NCBI GenBank assembly: GCA_021108435.1
Contig: JAIOQY010000053.1
Location: 1-32,545 of the forward strand
DNA length: 32,545 nucleotides
Direction: 5' to 3'
From: Candidatus Aegiribacteria sp.
GTDB taxonomy: Bacteria > Fermentibacterota > Fermentibacteria > Fermentibacterales > JCC-6
Shown piece after piece: positions 23,049-32,545 of the stretch; positions within the stretch are counted from its first letter, which is position 1, and the number at the start of each line of letters is the position of its first letter. The position numbers and the translations under genes are program-made. The notes under the pieces were generated by a model. The model saw only the letters and a program-made list of their open reading frames with translations, did not search any database and had not been told where the DNA came from.

Positions 23049-25565
23049 ATGAATCGGTTTATCCCTGTGCTTGCGTTTATCCTTGTATTTGTTTCTTCCG
23101 GATTGGCAGTTCCCGAGGGAATACCGATTCAGTACATGGATTCAAGGGGTCGAGTGCCGATGTCCACCGCTGACAGGATTGCGATAACAGGAGACCGGGG
23201 ATCATATCTCCGGACCGTAACCGCTCAAACCTGTGGATCGGATGCCGAGAAAGTCGTTCTTCTTGTGGAGGAAGATATCAATGTTGACATCAGTGCTTCT
23301 CTTGGCACTTTCCAGGCCGACCTTGAAGCTGAAGGATACGTTGTGGATATCTGGCTGATTTCAGGCGGTGCAGCAGATGATATCAGGAATGATCTTAAGA
23401 CTGAATACACCTCCGGTGATCTTGTCGGAGCAATCTGTATTGGTGACATTCCCACAGGATGGATGGATACAGAATTCGGAGAGTATCCTGTTGATGTATT
23501 TCTTATGGATATGAATGGAACCTGGAACGATCCTGATTCTGACGGTTTGTATGAATCAGCAAGTAATGACGGTCCTGAAATATGGATTGGAAGGTTAACT
23601 CCGAATTTCTTGACATATGGTGGAGCTGCGGAAATGCTGAACGATTACTTCGCCAAAAATCATGCCTACAGGACAGGTACTCTGACCCTTCCAGATAGAG
23701 GACTGGGATATGAGGAAGCCTTCACCGGACTTACACAGTACCTTGACCTCCTGTATGATGTTGTTGTCACGAAAAACAATCCTTCAGGAACGAATGCGGA
23801 TGATTTCAAAGCTGAACTGATGAACGGATACGAATGGGTTCATCTTATCTCCCACTCAAGCCCATGGGGAAGCAGCTTCCATGATGGAGGCTCCGGAGGG
23901 ACTTTCAACAATTTTGAAGTACTTCCGCTCGATCCTCATGCCTTTTTCTACGTTCTCAACTGCTGCTCCAACGGCCGATGGACTGAAGTGGACAATATCG
24001 CGAACAGTTATATCTGGAGTGATTCTTATGGCCTTGCTGTGCTGGCGCAGACAAGAGTAGACTATACCAATTATTTCCAGGCGTACTATCAGTCCCTTGC
24101 TTCAGGTAACTGCCTCGGAGCGGCTTACAGGACATGGCTTGCGGGAAACATGTATTACGCACGCGCTGCAGTGCTTCTGGGTGATCCTACTCTCAAACCC
24201 AGAATGAGCGGTATATGCCTGGGTTCCACGCATGAAGAAGGATCAACACCCGATCTGGACAGCTGGCTGGCATATGATATCACCGACGGACTTCATACTC
24301 AGGGGCGGGTAGATACGTATTCGGATCCATCCTCAGGCGAGATATTTGCCGTCTGCGGATCATCCTATCCTGTCCGAGCCAATATCCTGGCTACACATTC
24401 GAATGGAATTTCGTGGACAGAACCGGCTATAGTCTGTCAGCACGAGTACTGGGACTGGCATCCAACTGTCGGAGGAGATGGCACCGGCAACGTCTGGACT
24501 GCCTGGCAGAGTATGCAGAACAACCATGAGGGTTACGATATCTACATTTCTCAATGGAACGGTTCATCGTGGGGCAGCGAAACCATCCTTACATCAGGTG
24601 ATCCCTTCGAGGTGGAACCTGCAATGGATGGAGGTAACGGCCATGCTTGGCTTGTCTGGCAGAAGTGGCAGAACGCGTCCACTGACATCGAAGGTATTCT
24701 CTGGACTGGGTCCAGCTGGTCATCGACATTCACATTATCATCCGAAGAAGGTCATGAGCGTTATCCGGATGTCGCTTACGGCGGAGACGGTTTTGGTCTG
24801 GTATATCATGCGAGACGTGACGGGAACTGGGTGATCGGTTTCCGTGATGCACCCGATTCGGGACCATTCAGCAGTGAAACCATCATTTCATCAGTCGATG
24901 AAAACAGCCGATATGCATGCATCACAAGTGACGGCTCGAATTATTGGGTTACCTGGCAGAACGACGCCGGCGCGATTCTGTGTTACAATGTAGGTACATG
25001 GTCTGTTCCTGAAATTGTCTCACCCTCCAGCGGATGCGCCAGACCGTCGATTACATCGAGTGCAACGGGTGAAATAACTGTAATGTGGACTGCCGATGGT
25101 AACACGCTCCAGTGCAATACATACAGTGGTGGTTCATGGAACGGTTATTACAGTGCTGTTAGCGCTGACGCGATTGATGATGCTTCTCTTGCATGGGCAG
25201 GAGAAAAGCTCTGGGCTGTTTACGGCAGAAGAGATACTGACCTTCAATGGGATCTCTGGGCATGCACACCTGATCTAACGGGAATCGGTGAATCCTCGTC
25301 CCCTGGGATCGGACAGTTCGCTATTTCTGTCGCAGGACGAAATCCGTTCAACAGTTCCACAGTTCTGCAGGTTTCTGCTTTGTCGAATTCCAGACTGAGG
25401 ATCTACGATTTAAATGGAAGAACGGTTATGGAGACAGAAATTGAATCAGGTCTCTTCACCTGGAGCGGAATATCAGATAACGGTAATCATGTTCCTTCAG
25501 GTGTATACTTCGCGGTGATATCAGATTCCAACATGACTGCGAGCTGCAAGCTGATAAAGATCTGA
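23049..25565 (+). CDS. Secreted gingipain-like (C25) cysteine peptidase with propeller and C-terminal sorting-type domain
   Basis: 838 residues. After a signal peptide (FIPVLAFILVFVSSGLA), residues ~70-390 match the C25/caspase-like fold: VVLLVEEDI, AICIGDIP, GRLTPN, catalytic His269 in HLISHSSPWG and Cys305/Cys306 in FYVLNCCSNG, then GLAVLAQTR and LLGDPTL. Residues ~400-740 hold repeated propeller-type strands (VWTAWQSMQN, AWLVWQKWQN, YWVTWQNDAG, VMWTADGNTL). The C-terminus is a FlgD/type IX-like domain (NPFNSSTVLQ…YDLNGRTV…VPSGVYFAVI), also seen at the end of the 15767-16789 gene. SD GGAG overlaps the lyase stop, so the two are co-transcribed. It probably digests extracellular protein to feed amino-acid catabolism (inference). 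Confidence 0.88.
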   Translation: MNRFIPVLAFILVFVSSGLAVPEGIPIQYMDSRGRVPMSTADRIAITGDRGSYLRTVTAQTCGSDAEKVVLLVEEDINVDISASLGTFQADLEAEGYVVDIWLISGGAADDIRNDLKTEYTSGDLVGAICIGDIPTGWMDTEFGEYPVDVFLMDMNGTWNDPDSDGLYESASNDGPEIWIGRLTPNFLTYGGAAEMLNDYFAKNHAYRTGTLTLPDRGLGYEEAFTGLTQYLDLLYDVVVTKNNPSGTNADDFKAELMNGYEWVHLISHSSPWGSSFHDGGSGGTFNNFEVLPLDPHAFFYVLNCCSNGRWTEVDNIANSYIWSDSYGLAVLAQTRVDYTNYFQAYYQSLASGNCLGAAYRTWLAGNMYYARAAVLLGDPTLKPRMSGICLGSTHEEGSTPDLDSWLAYDITDGLHTQGRVDTYSDPSSGEIFAVCGSSYPVRANILATHSNGISWTEPAIVCQHEYWDWHPTVGGDGTGNVWTAWQSMQNNHEGYDIYISQWNGSSWGSETILTSGDPFEVEPAMDGGNGHAWLVWQKWQNASTDIEGILWTGSSWSSTFTLSSEEGHERYPDVAYGGDGFGLVYHARRDGNWVIGFRDAPDSGPFSSETIISSVDENSRYACITSDGSNYWVTWQNDAGAILCYNVGTWSVPEIVSPSSGCARPSITSSATGEITVMWTADGNTLQCNTYSGGSWNGYYSAVSADAIDDASLAWAGEKLWAVYGRRDTDLQWDLWACTPDLTGIGESSSPGIGQFAISVAGRNPFNSSTVLQVSALSNSRLRIYDLNGRTVMETEIESGLFTWSGISDNGNHVPSGVYFAVISDSNMTASCKLIKI

Positions 25566-25679: not shown

Positions 25680-26099
25680 ATGTCTGAACCGGAACAGATT
25701 GACAGAGATATTGATATACCAGATCAGGTCGATTCCAGGAAGAGCAGCGATGGTTCCAGGAAGAAGAAGGTTTCAGGAATCATCTGGATATTATCGATAT
25801 TTGCTATTGTTCTTATCGTAATACTGATTTTGCCATCAGGCAGTTCCAATTCATTCAATACAGATATCTCATCCGAGGAACAGGAACTTCGAGATATGAT
25901 ATACACCATTGCCTGCGATATACATGAATATCACCGGCTGAATGGAAGGCTCCCGCAAATTCCGGAGGAAATAGAAATATCTTCGCAGGCTATCACCTAC
26001 ACCGAAGAAGACGATTCACACTGGTTTCTCATGTCAGGTGACGATCTTATCTACTATTCCGATATGGACCCAATGGAATTCGCTAAGGGAGAAATCTGA
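25680..26099 (+). CDS. Single-pass membrane protein preceding a pseudopilin
   Basis: 139 residues: charged cytosolic N-terminus with KKK, one membrane helix (VSGIIWILSIFAIVLIVILIL), then an extracytoplasmic domain with DIHEYHRLNGRLPQIPEEIEISSQAITYTEEDDSHWFLMSGDDLIYYS. The 'Y..(I/L)NG.LP' and 'ITYT..D' elements recur in the 6963-7472 protein, and the region looks like the soluble half of a pilin-type protein without the prepilin peptide. I start at ATG 25680 (AAAGGAG 10 nt upstream) rather than 25659. Its stop overlaps the next start by one base (TGATG), so the two are translationally coupled. Perhaps a minor component of the same pilus-like system. Confidence 0.72.
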   Translation: MSEPEQIDRDIDIPDQVDSRKSSDGSRKKKVSGIIWILSIFAIVLIVILILPSGSSNSFNTDISSEEQELRDMIYTIACDIHEYHRLNGRLPQIPEEIEISSQAITYTEEDDSHWFLMSGDDLIYYSDMDPMEFAKGEI

Positions 26100-26503
26100 T
26101 GATCTCCGGGAACCGTAGCGGGTTTACGCTTGTGGAATTGCTTGTAGTCGTTATCGTCATCGGTGTCCTTGCGGCTATTGCCATACCGAAGTTCGGTAAT
26201 CTGTCCGAACAGGCTAAAACACAGAGCTGCAGACATAACATGAGAAATCTGGCAAGTGCCCTTCAGATGTACTATGGCTCAACGGGTCATTACCCCTATG
26301 AGAATGAAGGACACAGGTGGAGAAATTTTTCAGCGATTGAGGAGTACATACAGAATTGGGACAAGCTTGAATGCCCCTCATGCGGTACTCATTACAGATA
26401 TAGAATCACCGGAAGGAATTACGACAACTTCAGAATCAGAGGCTGGAACAGAAATTGCAGAAATAATCATGGCATGTATGTAAACGGAATGCCTAACTGG
26501 TAA
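26099..26503 (+). CDS. Type II secretion / type IV pilus-like pseudopilin
   Basis: 134 residues. A prepilin leader MISGNRSG|FTLVELLVVVIVIGVLAAIAIPKF has the cleavage Gly, +1 Phe and Glu at +5, which is processed by prepilin peptidase and forms the hydrophobic assembly helix. Residues ~40-60 (AKTQSCRHNMRNLASALQMYYGSTGHYP) are like GspG/ComGC-type heads. The C-terminal part is unusual in being short and rich in Cys, Asn and Arg, with a CPSCG knuckle and a second Cys (RNCRNNHG). A metal-binding site is possible. No assembly ATPase or secretin genes are in the window. Confidence 0.85.
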   Translation: MISGNRSGFTLVELLVVVIVIGVLAAIAIPKFGNLSEQAKTQSCRHNMRNLASALQMYYGSTGHYPYENEGHRWRNFSAIEEYIQNWDKLECPSCGTHYRYRITGRNYDNFRIRGWNRNCRNNHGMYVNGMPNW

Positions 26504-26588: not shown

Positions 26589-27260
26589 TTACTTCCCGAT
26601 CTGTCCTGCTCGTCCTACATATGCAGCAACCTTATACTCTATCTCATTCGCCTTGACCGCATTCCCAGCTTCTTCGCCAAAATAAAAGCTCAGCAGTTCT
26701 CTTGCTTCATCGAGTGTATCAAACCGGAACGATGTTTCAAGTATTCTACGCTCAAATCCATGGTTCGTGTACCACTCCCCACCATCTGAAATCGAATTCC
26801 TCGACAGCGAGCAAAACTCATCATCTCCAGCGTTTTCGATGATTGCGATAACGCCGTTCGATGTTACTACTCGACGAACCTCCATCAATCCTTCTAGTTT
26901 ACAGTCTATGCCGGACAGAAAGAATGCCCATGTGGCATAAGCAGCGGTAAACGCGTTATCAATAAACGGTAATTTCTGCGCAACTCCCCGCGACCAGAGA
27001 AGAGGTTTATCTGTATCAATCATCTCTGGTTCTGGCTCTAAAGCCACGACGAGACGGTCGTTGCTCTTTACGTAATCGGCAACAAATCCGTTTCCTGCAC
27101 CGATGTCCAAGACACATCCGTTCGGCAGAATGCTGTCTAAGAATTGGAGGACAATACCGTCACGGTCCATACATCTGCGTTCGATCTCAAAGAGCCGCGG
27201 ATTCTCCGCTGCGTAGAACGGGATCACCTCATTGCTGTTATCCCTCATTCTTCCTTTCAT
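26589..27260 (-). CDS. Class I SAM-dependent methyltransferase
   Basis: 223 residues. Motif I is VLDIGAGNGFVADYV (~residues 50-64). It is followed by ALEPEPEMI (acidic loop after strand 2), AQKLPFIDNAFTAAYATWAFFL (motif like Methyltransf_11) and GVIAIIENAG. The substrate is unknown. The start is uncertain: ATG 27260 has no clear SD, and the ATG at 27248 has AAAGGAAG very close. It is the left-most gene of the all-minus accessory block and may or may not belong to the cassette-like array, since I found no convincing attC-like element on either side. Confidence 0.8.
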   Translation of the reverse strand: MKGRMRDNSNEVIPFYAAENPRLFEIERRCMDRDGIVLQFLDSILPNGCVLDIGAGNGFVADYVKSNDRLVVALEPEPEMIDTDKPLLWSRGVAQKLPFIDNAFTAAYATWAFFLSGIDCKLEGLMEVRRVVTSNGVIAIIENAGDDEFCSLSRNSISDGGEWYTNHGFERRILETSFRFDTLDEARELLSFYFGEEAGNAVKANEIEYKVAAYVGRAGQIGK

Positions 27261-27377
27261 AACTGTCCGAATAAGCCGTCCCGCTTACCACGCTGGTAAT
27301 CCAGGCGAGGTATGTTCAATTTGGCTGATATTAATATAGTGTTCTTCAAATGTGTTTACAGATAAGAATAGCAAGTT

Positions 27378-28496
27378 CTATGACCCGTCTGCAGGCATAT
27401 CGATATCCAGTGTATAAACTCGTTCGAATCGACTGGAATTACTGATAGCTGCAATGATACCAATCTGATCAACACTGAAAAACAGACCGGGATCCTTCTC
27501 ATTTCGATAAAGACGGGCTGTATATATCATGTCTCCTGAACGATTCCAGATATCGAACAGGTAGTCAATATCCGAATCGTGCCTTACAACCCACAAATTA
27601 CCTTCAGCATCTGTTCCTGCAAGCGATATGAGCTGGTAGAAAGGAGACGGTTCATAACCTCCGGTATAAGCCTGATCTTGTACTGCCCATTCCTCAAAAT
27701 CGTCGATCTCCGCCTGGATCTCCTCCGGAGATTTTGGCATTCTGTTTACATCATCTCGCTCAATCTGCAGCAGTTCCGTTCCGTTCGGAGTGTATACAGA
27801 GATGTGGTATTCTGTGTTATCAACCGCAATGAAGACATTACCTTCACAATCAGCAGTAAAATCAATAAGGTTGATCTCGGTGTACATCTCAGGAGCTGGC
27901 CAAATCCATTCGCGCGAATTGAATACAACTGAAGGTATTGAGGATGCGTCGAATCTTCCTATGATTGAACTGAAAATTATTTCCTCGTCACTCATTTCCA
28001 ATTTCATCATCAAACCTGCAATCGAAGATGAATCAAGCGGATACATGCTGAGTGGTACATACCTATCAGTTGTGAAGTAACTTCCAAGATAGTTACCGGC
28101 AATATCGAAGGACATCACTTCCTGCTTCATTTCGTCTGAAACAAGTATCCTGCCGTCATGCAGGGCACATATTGCCTGTGGGAGAAGCAATTCTCCAGGA
28201 CCATCTCCCCGTCGGCTTATCAGGTAAGAATCACCTTCAGTCGTGATGACTCGAATTCTAAGGGATGAGCGATCCAGCAGCAGAATAGAACCATCAGGAT
28301 GATTGCAGAGGCCATTGATGCTGCCAATCATATTCAGGGAATCTCCAAGCTCCACGCCGAATGAATCATCTATCGATATTTCGTATTCAGGTATAGTGAT
28401 CGAATTGGATATTGCAGGTTCTTGATCATCCGATTCGCATGAACCTGATAAAGATATCATGATTACCAGGATAGCTATAGAAAGGGCGGATTTCAT
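27378..28496 (-). CDS. 6-bladed beta-propeller lipoprotein
   Basis: 372 residues. Signal peptide MKSALSIAILVIMISLSGSC has a plausible, slightly atypical lipobox (SGS|C), so it is probably lipid-anchored. The mature domain is like the Bacteroidetes 6-bladed-propeller family, with blades IGSINGLCNHPDGSILLLDRSSLRIRVI, ALHDGRILVSDEMKQEVMSFDIAGNYLGSYF, DFTADCEGNVFIAVDNTEYHISVYTPNG and TDAEGNLWVVRHDSDIDYLFDIWNRSG. I use the ATG at 28496 (AGGAAGG 6 nt upstream). The longer frame to 28559 is made of the attC-like repeat at 28523-28590. Ligand unknown. The ~115 bp after its stop contain an imperfect hairpin (27294-27325 area) but no clear recombination-site boxes. Confidence 0.78.
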   Translation of the reverse strand: MKSALSIAILVIMISLSGSCESDDQEPAISNSITIPEYEISIDDSFGVELGDSLNMIGSINGLCNHPDGSILLLDRSSLRIRVITTEGDSYLISRRGDGPGELLLPQAICALHDGRILVSDEMKQEVMSFDIAGNYLGSYFTTDRYVPLSMYPLDSSSIAGLMMKLEMSDEEIIFSSIIGRFDASSIPSVVFNSREWIWPAPEMYTEINLIDFTADCEGNVFIAVDNTEYHISVYTPNGTELLQIERDDVNRMPKSPEEIQAEIDDFEEWAVQDQAYTGGYEPSPFYQLISLAGTDAEGNLWVVRHDSDIDYLFDIWNRSGDMIYTARLYRNEKDPGLFFSVDQIGIIAAISNSSRFERVYTLDIDMPADGS

Positions 28497-28522
28497 CATA
28501 TACCTTCCTACTTGATAATGCT

Positions 28523-28590
28523 TTAAATCAGCAGACTGCGAAACATTCGCATCGATCATATAACCGCAGTTCCGCTGAATTTTGTTATGT
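28523..28590 (-). other. attC-like site D (after the S9 peptidase gene)
   Basis: Imperfect inverted repeat. On plus, the left arm (TAAATCAGCAGACTGCG) pairs with GCAGTTCCGCTGAATTTTG of the right arm: CAGC-(A/G)-GA-CTGCG with one bulged A. On minus, the entry box is ACATAAC, one mismatch from RYYYAAC; the exit box (GATTTAA) is degenerate. The left arm shares an exact 20-mer with site C. Confidence 0.55.
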
Positions 28591-28639
28591 TCTAATCATC
28601 TTCCAGCACGATGAACTCTGACAAATACTATCCTACTTT

Positions 28640-30439
28640 TTATTTCTTCGCAACATGTTTATCAAGGAAACATAGAATTGTTTTCATGACTTCAATCTGT
28701 GTTGATTTCATACTGAAGTAGTGATTCTCATCCTTATAGATTTCAAGACTACATTCCTTGCCATTGCTTTCCATTTGATTCCTCAGTTGTTCAGCTTGAT
28801 CGAGAGGAACGCGCTCATCCCTGGCTCCCTGAAAGATCAGTAATGGTGCTGTTATCTCAGAGCAATGAGTAATTGGAGATCGAGCTCGATAGAATTCAGG
28901 ATTCTCCTCAGGTCTGCCGATCTGATTCTCTAACCACTCTCTTACCCAACCACTGGTACTGCTGTGGAATGTCTTCAGATCAACGAAACCGAAAAGGTCA
29001 ATTCCAGCTACCCATAATTCAGGAGTCCTGGCCATAGCCATCAGCATCAGGTAACCTCCGTAGCTTCCTCCCAGGAGAGCTATTCTGTCTGGATCAGCCT
29101 GCCTAGCGGACATCAGCCACTCAGCTGCAGCAACTACATCCTTCAGGTCTCCACCTCCCCAGTCGCCGATGCTTTTTTTCTCAAATTCCTTTCCGTATCC
29201 AGTACTCCCCCGAAAGTCAGGGGCAAGAACCAAATATCCGTGATTAACCAGGAGCTGAATCCTTGGGTGCCACCAATTAAAAGTTTGGTAGTTGGGACCT
29301 CCATGAAGTCTGATAACCGCTGGAGGGAGCTCATCATCTGGTTTATATGCTGGTCTGAAAAGAAGTGCAGGTATCTCCAAACCATCGAGAGAGGAATAAG
29401 TAATTTCTTCCGGTGTCACCAGCACTTCCTTGTCGACGGAATCAGGCAGCCCGGCAGTCAGTTGCAGCAACTCATCTGTATTAAGATCTATGTGCCATAG
29501 GCTTAATGGATTGAGTGGTCCCTCATGAGTAAATACAATTGACCTGGAATCAGATGTGAATTCCATATCTGAGCACAAACCAGCAGTTGGTCCAGGGAGC
29601 CTTATCTCACCGCTTTTCAAGTCTGCTATCGTGATTAATCGACTCCCTCGCATATCAACTTGATAAGCCAATTTGGATCCATCCGGTGACCATGTCGGAA
29701 TCCAGCAATTCCTTTCCCCAGTAGTCACCCATCTAACATTATCCTCAGGTAAATAAAGAATTCCGATATGGTAACAACCGCTGACATTTGAAGCAAATGC
29801 AACACTCTTTCCATCCGGTGACCATTTACCCCAACCGTTACGATCTGCTTCAGGCCCGATCTTCCTCAACTTCTTGCTGTCGAGGTTGATCAATATCATC
29901 TCATACTGGCTAAGTGGGCCATAGCCAACTCTTCTGTAGAAAAGCAATCTGCATCCGTCCGGAGACCATTGTGGATACAGATCCATTTCCGAACCTGAAG
30001 TAAGACGAAGCAGGTTTCTACCATTAGCATCTATCGTGAAGATATCTGTTGAGCTTTCGCAGTTTGAGCAGAATACAAGATGCTTACCATCGCCGGACCA
30101 GGAAGTATCCCAAATGCTACCCTCTTCAAGTTCGAGCAGTGTGTTTATAGTTCTGTCAAATAAGCTCATTGTGCAGAGATTGCATCCTTTACCATCTTCT
30201 CCTGAATGTACAAATGCAATCAGATCATTTCTTGACGACCAGGTGAGTGCAGTCTTGGAGCCAACGCATTCAGTCAACTGTTCTGGTTCGAATTCTTTTA
30301 TCTCCGCAAGGTAAATTTGAGAAACACCTTTGGTTTCTCTGGAGAAAGCTACCGACTTGCCATCAGGTGAAAGTGAGAAACTCCTAACGATCTTTAGATT
30401 GTTAATGAGTTCCTCAGGAGTAAGGTGGTTCAAGCTCAT
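28640..30439 (-). CDS. S9-family prolyl oligopeptidase-like peptidase (TolB-like propeller + alpha/beta hydrolase)
   Basis: 599 residues, no signal peptide, so probably cytoplasmic. The N-terminal ~340 residues are propeller repeats of the TolB/WD40-like type (SPDGKSVAFSRE, SWSGDGKHLVFCSN, QWSPDGCRLLFYRR, KWSPDGKSVAFASN, TWSPDGSKLAYQVD). The C-terminal hydrolase has RLHGGPNYQTF (oxyanion region), nucleophile Ser459 in GGSYGGYLML, Asp541 in GARDERVP and His573 in DENHYFS. All catalytic residues are present. It would cleave short peptides, acylaminoacyl peptidase type. ATG 30439 has AAAGGTG 10 nt upstream. Flanked by attC-like sites E and D, it would be an unusually long cassette. Confidence 0.9.
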   Translation of the reverse strand: MSLNHLTPEELINNLKIVRSFSLSPDGKSVAFSRETKGVSQIYLAEIKEFEPEQLTECVGSKTALTWSSRNDLIAFVHSGEDGKGCNLCTMSLFDRTINTLLELEEGSIWDTSWSGDGKHLVFCSNCESSTDIFTIDANGRNLLRLTSGSEMDLYPQWSPDGCRLLFYRRVGYGPLSQYEMILINLDSKKLRKIGPEADRNGWGKWSPDGKSVAFASNVSGCYHIGILYLPEDNVRWVTTGERNCWIPTWSPDGSKLAYQVDMRGSRLITIADLKSGEIRLPGPTAGLCSDMEFTSDSRSIVFTHEGPLNPLSLWHIDLNTDELLQLTAGLPDSVDKEVLVTPEEITYSSLDGLEIPALLFRPAYKPDDELPPAVIRLHGGPNYQTFNWWHPRIQLLVNHGYLVLAPDFRGSTGYGKEFEKKSIGDWGGGDLKDVVAAAEWLMSARQADPDRIALLGGSYGGYLMLMAMARTPELWVAGIDLFGFVDLKTFHSSTSGWVREWLENQIGRPEENPEFYRARSPITHCSEITAPLLIFQGARDERVPLDQAEQLRNQMESNGKECSLEIYKDENHYFSMKSTQIEVMKTILCFLDKHVAKK

Positions 30440-30469
30440 ATACTACATTCACCTTTTCGTTTTTGACTA

Positions 30470-30536
30470 TAACATCAGCCATCACTCGCGGAAGGAGTTG
30501 TATACACAGCCCGTCGAGAGCATGGCTTTGTTCGAT
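30470..30536 (-). other. attC-like site E (after the toxin gene)
   Basis: Left and right arms pair as AAC, AGCCAT, CTCG and CGG in the same order, separated by asymmetric unpaired bases (ATC/AA, CA/GCT, -/A). This gives 16 pairs in four blocks. On minus, the entry box ATCGAAC (one mismatch to RYYYAAC) begins 3 nt after the toxin stop codon; the exit is GTTATAG. This R-L-spacer-L-R layout with extrahelical bases is the attC hallmark. Confidence 0.6.
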
Positions 30537-30538
30537 TT

Positions 30539-30796
30539 CTACCTGTATACGTTTTTCCTGTGCCTGGCTCTGACTACACAGACAATGAGTTCCTCATCTT
30601 TGATCTCATATATCACCCTGTATACACCACAGCGTAATCTGTACTTTTCCTCACCGGAGAGTTTCCTGGATTGTGGCGGGCGTGGATTATTGGCAAGAGC
30701 CCCAATTGCCTTAACGATGCGCCTCACATCCTTCTTAGGTATGCCATTGAGATCTTTGTGGACAGAATTGCGGACAAGAATTCTATATTCTGCCAT
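30539..30796 (-). CDS. RelE/ParE-type toxin
   Basis: 85 residues, basic. The family pattern is clear: YRILVRNSVHKDLNGIPKKDVRRIVKAI…LANNPRPPQSRKLSGEEKYRLRCGVYRVIYEIKDEELIVCVVRARHRKNVYR. The 'KL-G…YRLR-G-YRVIYEI' core and the 'R-RHRK-VYR' C-terminus are typical of RelE-fold mRNA interferases. It overlaps the antitoxin gene by 14 bp and has no own promoter, so it is translated with it. A stop codon directly before an attC-like site, and a self-sufficient TA operon, are both usual in sedentary integrons. Confidence 0.9.
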   Translation of the reverse strand: MAEYRILVRNSVHKDLNGIPKKDVRRIVKAIGALANNPRPPQSRKLSGEEKYRLRCGVYRVIYEIKDEELIVCVVRARHRKNVYR

Positions 30797-31016
30797 TGCG
30801 CTTCAGCTCATTAACGAACTCTTCGAAGGCGATAGCAGGCTCATCTTGTCGAATTCGGAATACAGCCAAATCATCTGCATCCGCAGAAAGTTCATCGCGG
30901 ATGGCATCGTTTACCAGGTCTGACATCGAGCGTGATGTCTCGATCGATTTGAGTCGCAGAGCCTTGTGCAGATCAGGTTCAAGATATACTGTAGATCGCT
31001 TTGTCAGCTCAGTCAT
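30783..31016 (-). CDS. CopG/ribbon-helix-helix antitoxin
   Basis: 77 residues. The N-terminal ribbon-helix-helix is KRSTVYLEPDLHKALRLKSIETSRSMSDLVNDAIRDEL (about residues 6-43). The acidic C-terminal tail (FEEFVNELKRNGRI) would wrap the toxin. ATG 31016 has a GGAGGTG site. It precedes and overlaps the RelE-like toxin. It likely represses its own promoter through the CATAACG-N6-CGTTATG palindrome at 31042-31061. Confidence 0.9.
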   Translation of the reverse strand: MTELTKRSTVYLEPDLHKALRLKSIETSRSMSDLVNDAIRDELSADADDLAVFRIRQDEPAIAFEEFVNELKRNGRI

Positions 31017-31041
31017 GATTCACCTCCGATTCTGTACGATG

Positions 31042-31068
31042 CATAACGCTATAACGTTATGATGTCAA
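31042..31068 (-). promoter_or_regulatory. Toxin-antitoxin promoter and operator
   Basis: TTGACA (31068-31063) on minus. The palindrome CATAACG-N6-CGTTATG (31042-31061), with an inner 10-bp palindrome ATAACGTTAT, covers the -35/-10 spacer. The -10 (TATGCA at 17-bp spacing) is weak. It fits autoregulation by the ribbon-helix-helix protein. Confidence 0.6.
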
Positions 31069-31090
31069 GATGTCTTTTTGATACTGAATC

Positions 31091-31168
31091 GAATGTTTGC
31101 ATAACCAGCACAGATATTACTCTGGTTCATAGCTTTGCATTTGTGGCTGGTCCGTGCATTTGTTAGGT
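31091..31168 (-). other. attC-like site B (after the NUDIX gene), with 55-bp repeat shared with site A
   Basis: The core site is 31099-31168. On minus, the entry box ACCTAAC matches RYYYAAC exactly and contains the NUDIX stop codon TAA. Then AAAT, GCACGGA; at the other end TCTGTGC, TG, GTTATGC (one mismatch to GTTRRRY). TAAC pairs GTTA, and GCACGGA pairs TCTGTGC (7 pairs with one G-T), with unequal spacers of 4 and 2 nt. Positions 31091-31145 match 32491-32545 at 52/55 bases. Confidence 0.65.
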
Positions 31169-31699
31169 GAATTCTCTCTCATTCATTGCTTCCATTGCCA
31201 ATATTTCTCTTTCTAGCCAAGATGGTTTTTTATCTTTTGATGATTTAAGTATTTGTTTGTTTAGTCCAATTGCCTTTTCTATGGTAATCCAAATCGGTAT
31301 AAATCCTAATTCTTCTTCATATTTATCAAGTTGCTGTGTTACATATTCATTATTTACTTCACATAGATAATACTCTGAAATCATTTTAAATAATGTTGTT
31401 TCTGATTCCTTTGATTGACTCAATTCTGTAATTCTTATTACTATTTCTTTAATTTCTGATAATACTAGTCCACATTCTTCTCTAATTTCTCTTCTTAATG
31501 CTTCTGAATCATCTTCCTGTTTTTCTACTCCACCACCAGGAAACTTATAATCACCAACATTAGTTGAATGAATTAGTAGGACTTTGTCCTGTCTTCGTAT
31601 TATTGCTCTTACTGCCTTTCTATATACTTCGGCATTAAATATTTGCCCTTCTTTGTAATGAATTATTGAATGCTCAATCAATCTTATTCTCCCATTCAC
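31163..31699 (-). CDS. NUDIX hydrolase, very AT-rich
   Basis: 178 residues. A full NUDIX box is present: G-GVEKQ-E-DDSEALR-REIREECGL (fits GX5EX7REUXEEXGU), preceded by AIIRRQDKVLLIHSTNVGDYKFPG. It would hydrolyse a nucleoside diphosphate linked to another moiety; the substrate is not predictable. Base use stands out: two sampled 60-bp lines are 25 % GC, against about 50 % in the adjacent antitoxin gene, so it was probably acquired from another genome. The start is a GTG at 31699 with only a weak upstream GGTGA, so the true start is uncertain. Its TAA stop is part of the attC-like box of site B. Confidence 0.88.
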   Translation of the reverse strand: MNGRIRLIEHSIIHYKEGQIFNAEVYRKAVRAIIRRQDKVLLIHSTNVGDYKFPGGGVEKQEDDSEALRREIREECGLVLSEIKEIVIRITELSQSKESETTLFKMISEYYLCEVNNEYVTQQLDKYEEELGFIPIWITIEKAIGLNKQILKSSKDKKPSWLEREILAMEAMNEREFT

Positions 31700-31730
31700 T
31701 CACCAATACGCTCGAAGCGCGGCGCGAACA

Positions 31731-31804
31731 CTCTAAATCAGCAGACTGCGAAAACAGGTCAATTAAATCCATGGCTGCGGTTCTGCTGCATTTTGTGGTT
31801 AGCT
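31731..31804 (-). other. attC-like site C (after the flavin reductase gene)
   Basis: The left arm (CTAAATCAGCAGACTGCG on plus) pairs with the right arm GCTGCGGTTCTGCTGCATTTTG…GTTAG: CTAA, then CAGCAGA, plus partial GC pairs, with a bulged G between AAAT and CAGCAGA. On minus the entry is AGCTAAC (one mismatch). It shares the exact 20-mer TAAATCAGCAGACTGCGAAA with site D. Confidence 0.5.
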
Positions 31805-31833
31805 GATCTCTTTTTCAAAATACACAGTAGTCT

Positions 31834-32439
31834 TTAAACAAGCTTCTCACCAAGCTTTCTGGCTTTGTTGAAATACTGCTCGATTTCTCGGTGCCATAGA
31901 TCACCAGCGTAAAGCTCTCCGACTGTCTGTGCATTCAGCGAATCCTTCAGGACTCCTTTAATCTGTGGTGTTGCCCAGTTACATAACTTTTTGTACTTGG
32001 CAGGTATCATTCCTGAAACTGCAATGATTACCGCTTTCCTTTTCTTGTTTGATCTTGGAGCTGGACAGCCTTTCACCAGGATGTAGCTCTTCGCTGGTTT
32101 CGCGAATGTCCAGCAGACCCTCTCAAGGAAAGTCATTACAAGTGCGGTAGCATATCCCATATGGATTGGAGTTCCCATTATTAAAGCATCAGCATTCAAG
32201 ATATCCTGATTGATTTCATCCATATCATCACGGATCACACATCTGGCAATGGGACTCTCAGTATCCCTGCTCCAGCAGGAAAGGCAATCTTTGCAGTGAC
32301 TTATCTTGTGATCAGCGAGGTAAAGTTTCTTCACAGATACATCAGGAAGCTTCTTCTTAACTCCCTCAATTGCTTTGTCTACCAGTGTATCAGTGGCTTG
32401 CTCTTTTCGTGGACTACCTATAATTGCTAGAAGGTTCAT
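31834..32439 (-). CDS. NADPH-dependent FMN reductase / iron-sulfur flavoprotein-like oxidoreductase
   Basis: 201 residues of flavodoxin-like fold. It opens MNLLAIIGSPRKEQATDTLVDKAIEG, the FMN phosphate-binding loop. Then comes HCKDCLSCWSRDTESPIARCVIRDDM, a CxxCxxC cysteine motif as in iron-sulfur flavoproteins, DALIMGTPIHMGYATALVMTFLER, and VIIAVSGMIP. It would move electrons from NAD(P)H through FMN, possibly to a quinone or metal substrate. I start at 32439 because the family usually begins just before the GSPR loop. The ATG at 32460 has its AGGA touching the start codon. It is flanked by attC-like sites A (upstream) and C (downstream). Confidence 0.85.
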   Translation of the reverse strand: MNLLAIIGSPRKEQATDTLVDKAIEGVKKKLPDVSVKKLYLADHKISHCKDCLSCWSRDTESPIARCVIRDDMDEINQDILNADALIMGTPIHMGYATALVMTFLERVCWTFAKPAKSYILVKGCPAPRSNKKRKAVIIAVSGMIPAKYKKLCNWATPQIKGVLKDSLNAQTVGELYAGDLWHREIEQYFNKARKLGEKLV

Positions 32440-32490
32440 TCCAACACTCAAATCAAACATTCCTCTCTACATTCATGCCGCGCGCAGCGC

Positions 32491-32545
32491 GAACGTTTGT
32501 ATAACCAGCACAGATATTACTCTGGGTCATAGCTTTGCATTTGTG
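32491..32545 (-). other. attC-like site A, truncated by window edge
   Basis: 52 of 55 bases match 31091-31145 at an offset of exactly 1400 bp. Only the exit half is visible (TGTGCTG then GTTATAC on minus). If it is a full site, the sequence right of 32545 should continue with the paired entry half (TCCGTGCATTTGTTAGG-like) and then a gene's 3' end. Confidence 0.55.

What the first reader, a model, noticed from the sequence alone, without database searches (positions are those of the whole stretch)
28523..32545. Integron-like gene cassette array with attC-like sites after four consecutive units
Seen: every gene from 26589 to 32460 is on the minus strand. From 28.5 kb rightwards, each unit (S9 peptidase, CopG-RelE pair, NUDIX, flavin reductase) ends just before a 67-74-bp imperfect inverted repeat. 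Sites B, C, D and E share one layout: RYYYAAC-like entry box (ACCTAAC, AGCTAAC, ACATAAC, ATCGAAC), short unequal spacer, L-box pairing, centre, L' and R'. Bulged bases are asymmetric. In B the gene's stop codon sits in the entry box. Known: integron cassettes are same-oriented, end in attC hairpins, often carry TA modules, and differ in base composition. Inferred: this is the distal end of an array or a CALIN in a lineage poorly covered by integron surveys; intI/attI would lie right of the window. The exit boxes are degenerate, so this may be a divergent attC class.
Basis: partly seen in the sequence, partly recalled or inferred. Interest (0 to 1): 0.85.

Follow-up and report, generated by a model that had tools for sequence, protein, structure and literature searches.

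The report
Integron cassette array in uncultured bacterium
The right end of this DNA stretch is a genuine integron, a row of swappable genes each ending in a folded recombination site, at a place where related bacteria carry other genes; it is a known kind of system in a little-studied bacterial lineage.

Summary
The window's right end is the distal part of an integron gene cassette array. The same genome encodes two full integron integrases and attC sites on ten other contigs. In relatives, single window units recur elsewhere; for two units, in two genomes each, shared sequence begins within a base of the integrase crossover (G|TT). In two related genomes the same place, between a pilin and an antiporter gene, holds other cassettes and an integrase relic. 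So the local integrase seems decayed, and movement now would need integrase in trans (inferred). Two exit boxes read A|TT; local decay explains this, and no separate attC class is needed. By-product: these integrases carry a second core-binding-like domain. A new member of a known kind.

The parts
28513..28590 (-). attC site closing the S9 peptidase cassette (entry box ACATAAC; exit reads A|TT at 28519/28518)
   Evidence: R2 hit 29.8 bits, E 2.4e-5; similarity of the next unit starts at 28518 in G012 and 28517 in G006
30467..30536 (-). attC site closing the toxin-antitoxin cassette (entry box ATCGAAC; exit G|TT)
   Evidence: R2 hit 27.4 bits, E 1e-4; carried along with the TA cassette in G011 and G006
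31088..31168 (-). attC site closing the NUDIX cassette (entry box ACCTAAC with the gene's stop codon; exit A|TT at 31094/31093)
   Evidence: R2 hit 50.4 bits, E 1.2e-10; copies on C133, C215 and at 32495-32545
31723..31804 (-). attC site closing the flavin-reductase cassette (entry box AGCTAAC; exit G|TT)
   Evidence: R2 hit 49.1 bits, E 2.5e-10
32488..32545 (-). 3' part of a further attC (upstream cassette), cut by the contig end
   Evidence: R1 hit 32.6 bits, cut off 5'; 96% identical to the attC at 31094-31170 over 51 bases; R2 without filters gives only 14.9 bits, E 0.16
31729..32493 (-). cassette: FMN-reductase/flavodoxin-like gene (ORF 31834-32460)
   Evidence: borders read from the G|TT positions in the sequence; PF03358, PF02525
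31094..31728 (-). cassette: NUDIX hydrolase gene (ORF 31163-31699)
   Evidence: PF00293; gene part shared with G018:C212 and G011:C72
30473..31093 (-). cassette: CopG-like antitoxin (30783-31016) and ParE-like toxin (30539-30796)
   Evidence: PF05016; 607/638 identical in G011 and 594/634 in G006, both starting at 31093
28519..30472 (-). cassette: S9 prolyl-oligopeptidase-like peptidase (ORF 28640-30439)
   Evidence: PF00326; 1527/1856 identical in G018:C104, similarity 30470-28615, its attC not shared
27329..28518 (-). cassette (not in the finding): beta-propeller-like protein; its own attC is not detectable here
   Evidence: same left border and right border within a base in G006:C15 and G012:C124, 86% identity; attC follows directly in both (L231:2867-2935, L232:3072-3146)
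26589..27260 (-). methyltransferase gene in the variable segment; cassette status not shown
   Evidence: PF08241; absent after the pilin gene in G004, G015, G006
26099..26503 (+). pilin-like gene: conserved chromosomal flank on the distal side
   Evidence: orthologues 83-91% identical in G006, G004, G015; similarity fades within about 40 bases after its stop codon

Best explanation
The segment from about 26.5 kb to the right contig end is the distal part of a chromosomal integron cassette array. Each unit is a gene or gene pair followed by an attC site; all genes read away from the integrase side, which lies beyond the contig end. A tyrosine recombinase of the IntI family recombines folded single-stranded attC with attI or another attC at G|TT, so single cassettes are gained, lost or shuffled (mechanism established for integrons; not shown here). 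By synteny with two relatives the locus lies between the pilin gene and an antiporter gene; its own intI survives only as an N-terminal relic on another contig (C62), so present-day movement would need one of the two intact IntI proteins encoded elsewhere in the genome acting in trans (inferred).
For: attC: 4 of 4 sites are the top hits to a model without window sequences; that model's 40 sites show 88% paired cells and double changes in 15 of 21 pairs. Integrase: two frames over the TIGR02249 cut-off (402.7 and 347.4 bits); nearest solved structure is the integron integrase 2A3V, aligned across the insert before the HxxR motif. Mobility: the TA unit starts at 31093, the first T after the crossover, in G011 and G006; the propeller unit starts at 28518 in G012 and 28517 in G006; the preceding sequence differs each time. 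A cassette of own contig C215 follows an attC there but follows attI directly in G004, matching from GTT on. Locus: pilin - other cassettes - intI relic - antiporter in G004 and G015; own antiporter orthologue (92%) lies near the end of C62, followed by a methyltransferase gene, intI relic, attI core and an attC. Architecture: G012:C169 has a full intI with 9 minus-strand attC sites on its left.
Against: No full intI in the window. No attC found behind the propeller and methyltransferase genes. Two of four exit boxes lack the G before TT. Folding energy is weak at three of four sites. The relics are short: on C62 27 aa at E 0.30 by tblastn, and none listed at E < 1 for G004 and G015; they rest on DNA similarity to the C215 fragment, strong upstream (141-166 identical of 179-186) and in the coding part 103/139 (G004), 71/92 (C62) and, barely above shuffled, 68/97 (G015). 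The join C53-C62 rests on two relatives. Shared S9 and NUDIX genes in relatives do not carry the window's attC. Rfam gave no match, and the published attC model was not available.
Confidence: 0.95

Rival explanations
1. The array is a fossil: it arose as an integron but no longer moves, because its own intI is a relic and its sites are decaying.
For: intI relics at the corresponding locus in own genome, G004 and G015; A|TT instead of G|TT at two of four exit boxes; no attC left behind the propeller gene although two relatives have one.
Against: Two intact IntI genes remain in the genome; two of four sites score about 50 bits, and close copies occur on other contigs; the TA cassette is 94-95% identical in two other genomes in other contexts.
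Confidence: 0.35
2. The hairpins are ordinary intergenic palindromes (terminators or REP-like repeats) behind unrelated genes, with no link to recombination.
For: Folding energy is unremarkable for three of four sites; genes are all codirectional, as in operons.
Against: Shared attC consensus with two one-sided unpaired bases and covariation; breakpoints at the crossover; IntI in the genome; 11 of 11 relative stretches lack the units at this place.
Confidence: 0.02
3. A divergent attC class or a different recombinase system only resembling integrons.
For: Exit boxes depart from GTTRRRY at several sites; integrases are longer than usual (414 and 401 aa) with an extra N-terminal domain.
Against: Site layout, conserved AAC/GTT and the unpaired base on L'' (G in 7 of 8 sites) match the description of attC; IntI family scores are over the cut-off; GCGTTAG exits occur in the same genome.
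Confidence: 0.05

Closest known systems
Sedentary chromosomal integrons (Vibrio, Xanthomonas and others; general features recalled)
   Same: IntI-type recombinase, attI, codirectional cassettes with attC, toxin-antitoxin cassettes, contigs breaking at near-identical attC copies
   Different: attC hits are spread over at least 11 contigs, with integrase or relic loci on C30, C178, C215 and C62; the window's locus seems to have lost its integrase; the integrases have an additional N-terminal domain
[quoted passage not shown] PMC9024848, passages; PMC9668308, passages)
   Same: Within the assembled window there are attC sites and no integrase
   Different: Synteny with two relatives points to an integrase relic and attI on the other side, so it looks like an integrase-decayed integron
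Integrons described from MAGs of uncultured lineages (Archaea, PMC9668308, passages)
   Same: Fragmented arrays over many contigs; CALIN and In0 pieces; same insertion point
   Different: Different host lineage; here cassette borders were compared base by base between related genomes and an intI-relic locus is shared by three genomes

Membership tests
Integron | Integron integrase (IntI) of the tyrosine recombinase family with the IntI-specific insert | tested here: met
   Two frames over TIGR02249's cut-off of 265 bits; PF13495 and PF00589; best solved relative 2A3V aligned across the insert and the HxxR...Y region. Not in cis in the window.
Integron | attC sites: R''-L''-L'-R' layout, conserved AAC/GTT, unpaired bases on L'' | tested here: met
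   Consensus fold of 8 non-window sites with unpaired columns 16 and 23 on the 5' arm; window sites found by model; features as described in PMC2727003 (passages). Two window exit boxes read ATT, not GTT.
Integron | attI site next to intI at which cassettes enter | tested here: met
   Six intI or relic loci share AAT(C/A)ATTG|TT; in the five that continue, the following sequence is unrelated; one cassette is joined there in G004 and to an attC in the own genome. Not inside the window.
Integron | Cassettes as separate units exchanged at G|TT | tested here: met
   TA and propeller units with borders within a base of the crossover in two genomes each; C215/G004 cassette from GTT on. S9 is less exact (similarity starts about a dozen bases after GTT in G018) and NUDIX shows gene-only similarity.
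Integron | Cassettes codirectional, integrase divergent from them | tested here: met
   Window genes all minus; C30 intI plus with minus cassette; G012:C169.
Integron | IntI-catalysed recombination of these sites | not testable with these tools
   Needs an assay.
Integron | Hit by the published attC covariance model (IntegronFinder) or HattCI | not tested
   Not available here; the Rfam library gave no match; own models were used.
CALIN | Two or more attC sites without a neighbouring integrase | tested here: inconclusive
   True of the contig, but the contig ends inside an attC, and a relic integrase plus attI probably lies on the other side.

The most novel reading that the evidence does not exclude
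In this lineage integron integrases with a tandem second core-binding-like domain act in trans on several dispersed cassette arrays whose own integrases have decayed, under an SOS (LexA-type) switch; the extra domain, present in integrases of many phyla, changes how attI/attC complexes form.
Probability: 0.3. Interest if true: 0.6.

Novelty: new member of a known kind. Interest (0 to 1): 0.4.

Why it matters
It adds a lineage in which integrons are common: attC-model hits in 33 of 36 genomes of the own family (own genome included) and an integrase over the cut-off in 19 of 36. It gives cassette borders to the base in uncultured bacteria. A locus with a relic integrase in three genomes is a natural test of whether arrays keep moving with integrase supplied in trans. 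The extra N-terminal domain of the integrase, seen in several phyla, is a concrete target for structural work.

Tried and rejected
A home-made attC scanner with strict boxes missed the window sites and gave one unrelated hit in the window; it only served to pick candidates. Rfam at gathering and relaxed threshold gave nothing. Folding energy was weak for three of four sites. Alignment A2 (10 rows) was set aside: row L165 aligned badly; L165 and L168 were left out of A4 (8 rows). The plus-strand reading of site 31723-31804 (12.0 bits) was rejected for the minus strand (49.1 bits). The intI relics of G004 and G015 were not found by tblastn at E < 1 and were tested by DNA alignment. No host name was obtained: the collections give no names, and kinship is not told for named loci. 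That the relatives list has no group between 'same order' and 'same domain' made me think of Fermentibacterota, which is recall and untested; a search for 'integron' with two names of that group listed 3 papers, one of them holding 'integron', none read. Papers on an extended or duplicated domain in IntI: listings only (20 and 15 shown); the domain terms have no occurrence in the listed ones.
Full report
WHAT IS THERE. The window is the whole of contig C53 of a 2.92 Mb draft genome in 218 contigs. From 26589 to 32460 the ORFs taken as genes are on the minus strand: a methyltransferase, a beta-propeller-like protein (Pfam match just below its cut-off), an S9 peptidase, a toxin-antitoxin pair, a NUDIX hydrolase and an FMN-reductase-like protein.

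ARE THEY attC SITES. I aligned eight candidate sites from outside the window: four from own contigs C30, C133 and C215, and four from three relatives' loci. RNAalifold gave one long hairpin of 21 pairs, ten with compensatory changes, with AAC paired to GTT near the base and two unpaired columns, both on the 5' arm. This is the R''-L''-L'-R' layout with extrahelical bases on L'' described for attC in PMC2727003 (passages read). A model from these sites collected 40 sites with E up to 0.01 in 34 loci of the own genome and relatives, again none from the window. On that alignment 88% of cells pair (shuffled 68%, slid 26-38%), and 15 of 21 pairs show double changes; the alignment was fitted to the structure and leans towards it. 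The second model, run without filters over the whole window, has the four sites as its four best hits: 50.4, 49.1, 29.8 and 27.4 bits, all minus strand; the contig-end copy follows with 14.9 bits, E 0.16, and the best hit away from the sites has 13.5 bits, E 0.36. Folding energy alone would not have convinced.

INTEGRASE. The same genome has two frames over the cut-off of the integron-integrase family: C30 (P0001, 414 aa) and C178 (P0002, 401 aa). Their nearest solved structure is the integron integrase 2A3V (E 1.1e-75 and 8.9e-69), aligned through the insert that precedes the HxxR motif. C30 starts with an attC and an AbiV-like gene on the minus strand, then the plus-strand intI. C178 starts exactly at the attI crossover. 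C215 carries two cassettes and an intI fragment of which 68 residues match P0002 (53%, E 4e-20). The genome search with the second model gives 18 sites with E up to 0.0021 on 10 contigs; one more in the window and one on C62 make at least 20 on 11 contigs. The genome search scores only its first-look candidates, so this is a lower bound.

DO THE UNITS MOVE. The array was searched as DNA against 41 genomes including the own; 22 had some match. The toxin-antitoxin unit occurs in G011 (607 of 638 identical) and G006 (594 of 634); in both, similarity starts at 31093, the first T after the crossover, and the sequence before it differs. The propeller unit occurs in G006 and G012 with the same left border (27329) and right borders at 28517 and 28518; an attC lies at both ends in G006 and at the 3' end in G012. 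The S9 gene is shared with G018 (1527 of 1856): similarity starts at 30470 in the window, two bases after its cassette start, but about a dozen bases after GTT in G018, and no attC hit lies behind it there. For NUDIX only the gene is shared, with a different attC behind it in G018 and G011. A cassette of own contig C215 follows an attC there but follows attI directly in G004; the match (1181 of 1379) begins at GTT. In the window two exit boxes read A|TT (28519/28518 and 31094/31093). Of the four relatives' junctions compared there, three have G before TT; at the G006 propeller the border cannot be placed exactly. So the degenerate boxes look like local change, not a separate class.

THE LOCUS. 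Of 11 stretches around orthologues of the neighbouring gene 23049-25565, three carry both pilin genes, and none of the 11 carries any of the window's seven array proteins at E 1e-4; several of these contigs end soon after the orthologue. In G004 the order is pilin, a DUF998 gene, an acetyltransferase gene, an attC, a gene without Pfam match, an intI relic, a sodium/hydrogen-exchanger-type antiporter. In G015 it is pilin, an acetyltransferase-like ORF, relic, methyltransferase-like ORF, antiporter (these names by reading). In G006 the contig ends in other sequence after the pilin. The relics are short. Against the C215 fragment the coding part matches 103/139 in G004, 71/92 on C62 and 68/97 in G015 (scores 61.5, 35.0 and 26.5; best of 100 shuffles 21.0, 21.0 and 19.5), and the region upstream of the start matches 148/186, 166/184 and 141/179. 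The own antiporter orthologue is on C62 (92%), whose end reads antiporter, methyltransferase gene, intI relic, attI core, an attC. Hence C53 and C62 probably flank one integron whose own integrase is gone. The link is by synteny only.

HOW COMMON. With the second model, 37 of 60 genomes have hits (own 1 of 1, same genus 15 of 18, same family 17 of 17, same order 1 of 6, other 3 of 18). An integrase over the cut-off is in 21 of 60 (1, 9 of 18, 9 of 17, 2 of 6, 0 of 18).

THE LONG INTEGRASE. About 90 residues precede the usual core-binding domain. In the named-genome search 63 of the 80 kept loci match from residue 7 or earlier, from several phyla by their titles; the query was the long form and one of its six search peptides lies in this part, so the share is biased upwards. 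38 such N-termini (3 own, 35 of the named loci) share a motif around DWQIxQA. As single sequences 27 of 38 match PF13495 at E up to 1 (best 2e-9), but not P0001's own; the profile meets 2A3V's core-binding domain (E 0.0012) and the profile of the second domain (26 rows; probability 94%). A predicted structure (mean pLDDT 89.5, four helices) aligns best with tyrosine recombinases (2A3V Z 10.3, 80 aligned, 2.6 A), though Foldseek has no match under E 0.001, and Z near 10 for a helical bundle is not proof by itself. So the extension is most likely a second core-binding domain. Its role is unknown.

VERDICT. A genuine integron array of a known kind. What is shown: sites, integrases, borders, and variability between related genomes. 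What is inferred: present activity in trans, and the join of the two contigs.

Noticed in passing
L019:1032-1316, L020:176-445 (own intI genes) and 35 named loci: Integron integrases with about 90 extra N-terminal residues that look like a second core-binding domain.
   Followed up: yes
L236:1465-1485 (own lexA promoter); L187:3649-3665; L020:106-122: The lexA promoter holds TAAACATATGTA; intI or relic promoters hold AAACANATGTAYACTAA, found in 11 of 236 loci, 6 distinct places, 5 of them within about 75 bases upstream of a possible intI start or in a relic's promoter, the sixth (L180) 1.3 kb away. Suggests SOS control of intI, known in other integrons (PMC3108266, passages). The looser search in L236 alone was not above chance.
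   Followed up: partly
L019:155-841: The first cassette at the C30 integrase encodes an AbiV-like HEPN protein, a candidate phage-defence gene.
   Followed up: no
L020:1383-1479: A tRNA-Sec gene lies on the opposite strand right behind the C178 integrase.
   Followed up: no
L022:2586-2867: C215 carries an N-terminal integrase fragment (68 residues match P0002) beside two cassettes, another decayed integrase in the genome.
   Followed up: partly
window 27261-27329: Where two relatives have an attC behind the propeller cassette, the window has only an ATTGAAC-like box and a GTTAT, with no model hit: a probable decayed attC.
   Followed up: partly
L187:3779-3984: The first unit after attI on C62 ends in an attC; no convincing gene was seen in it, so it may be a gene-less cassette.
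   Followed up: no
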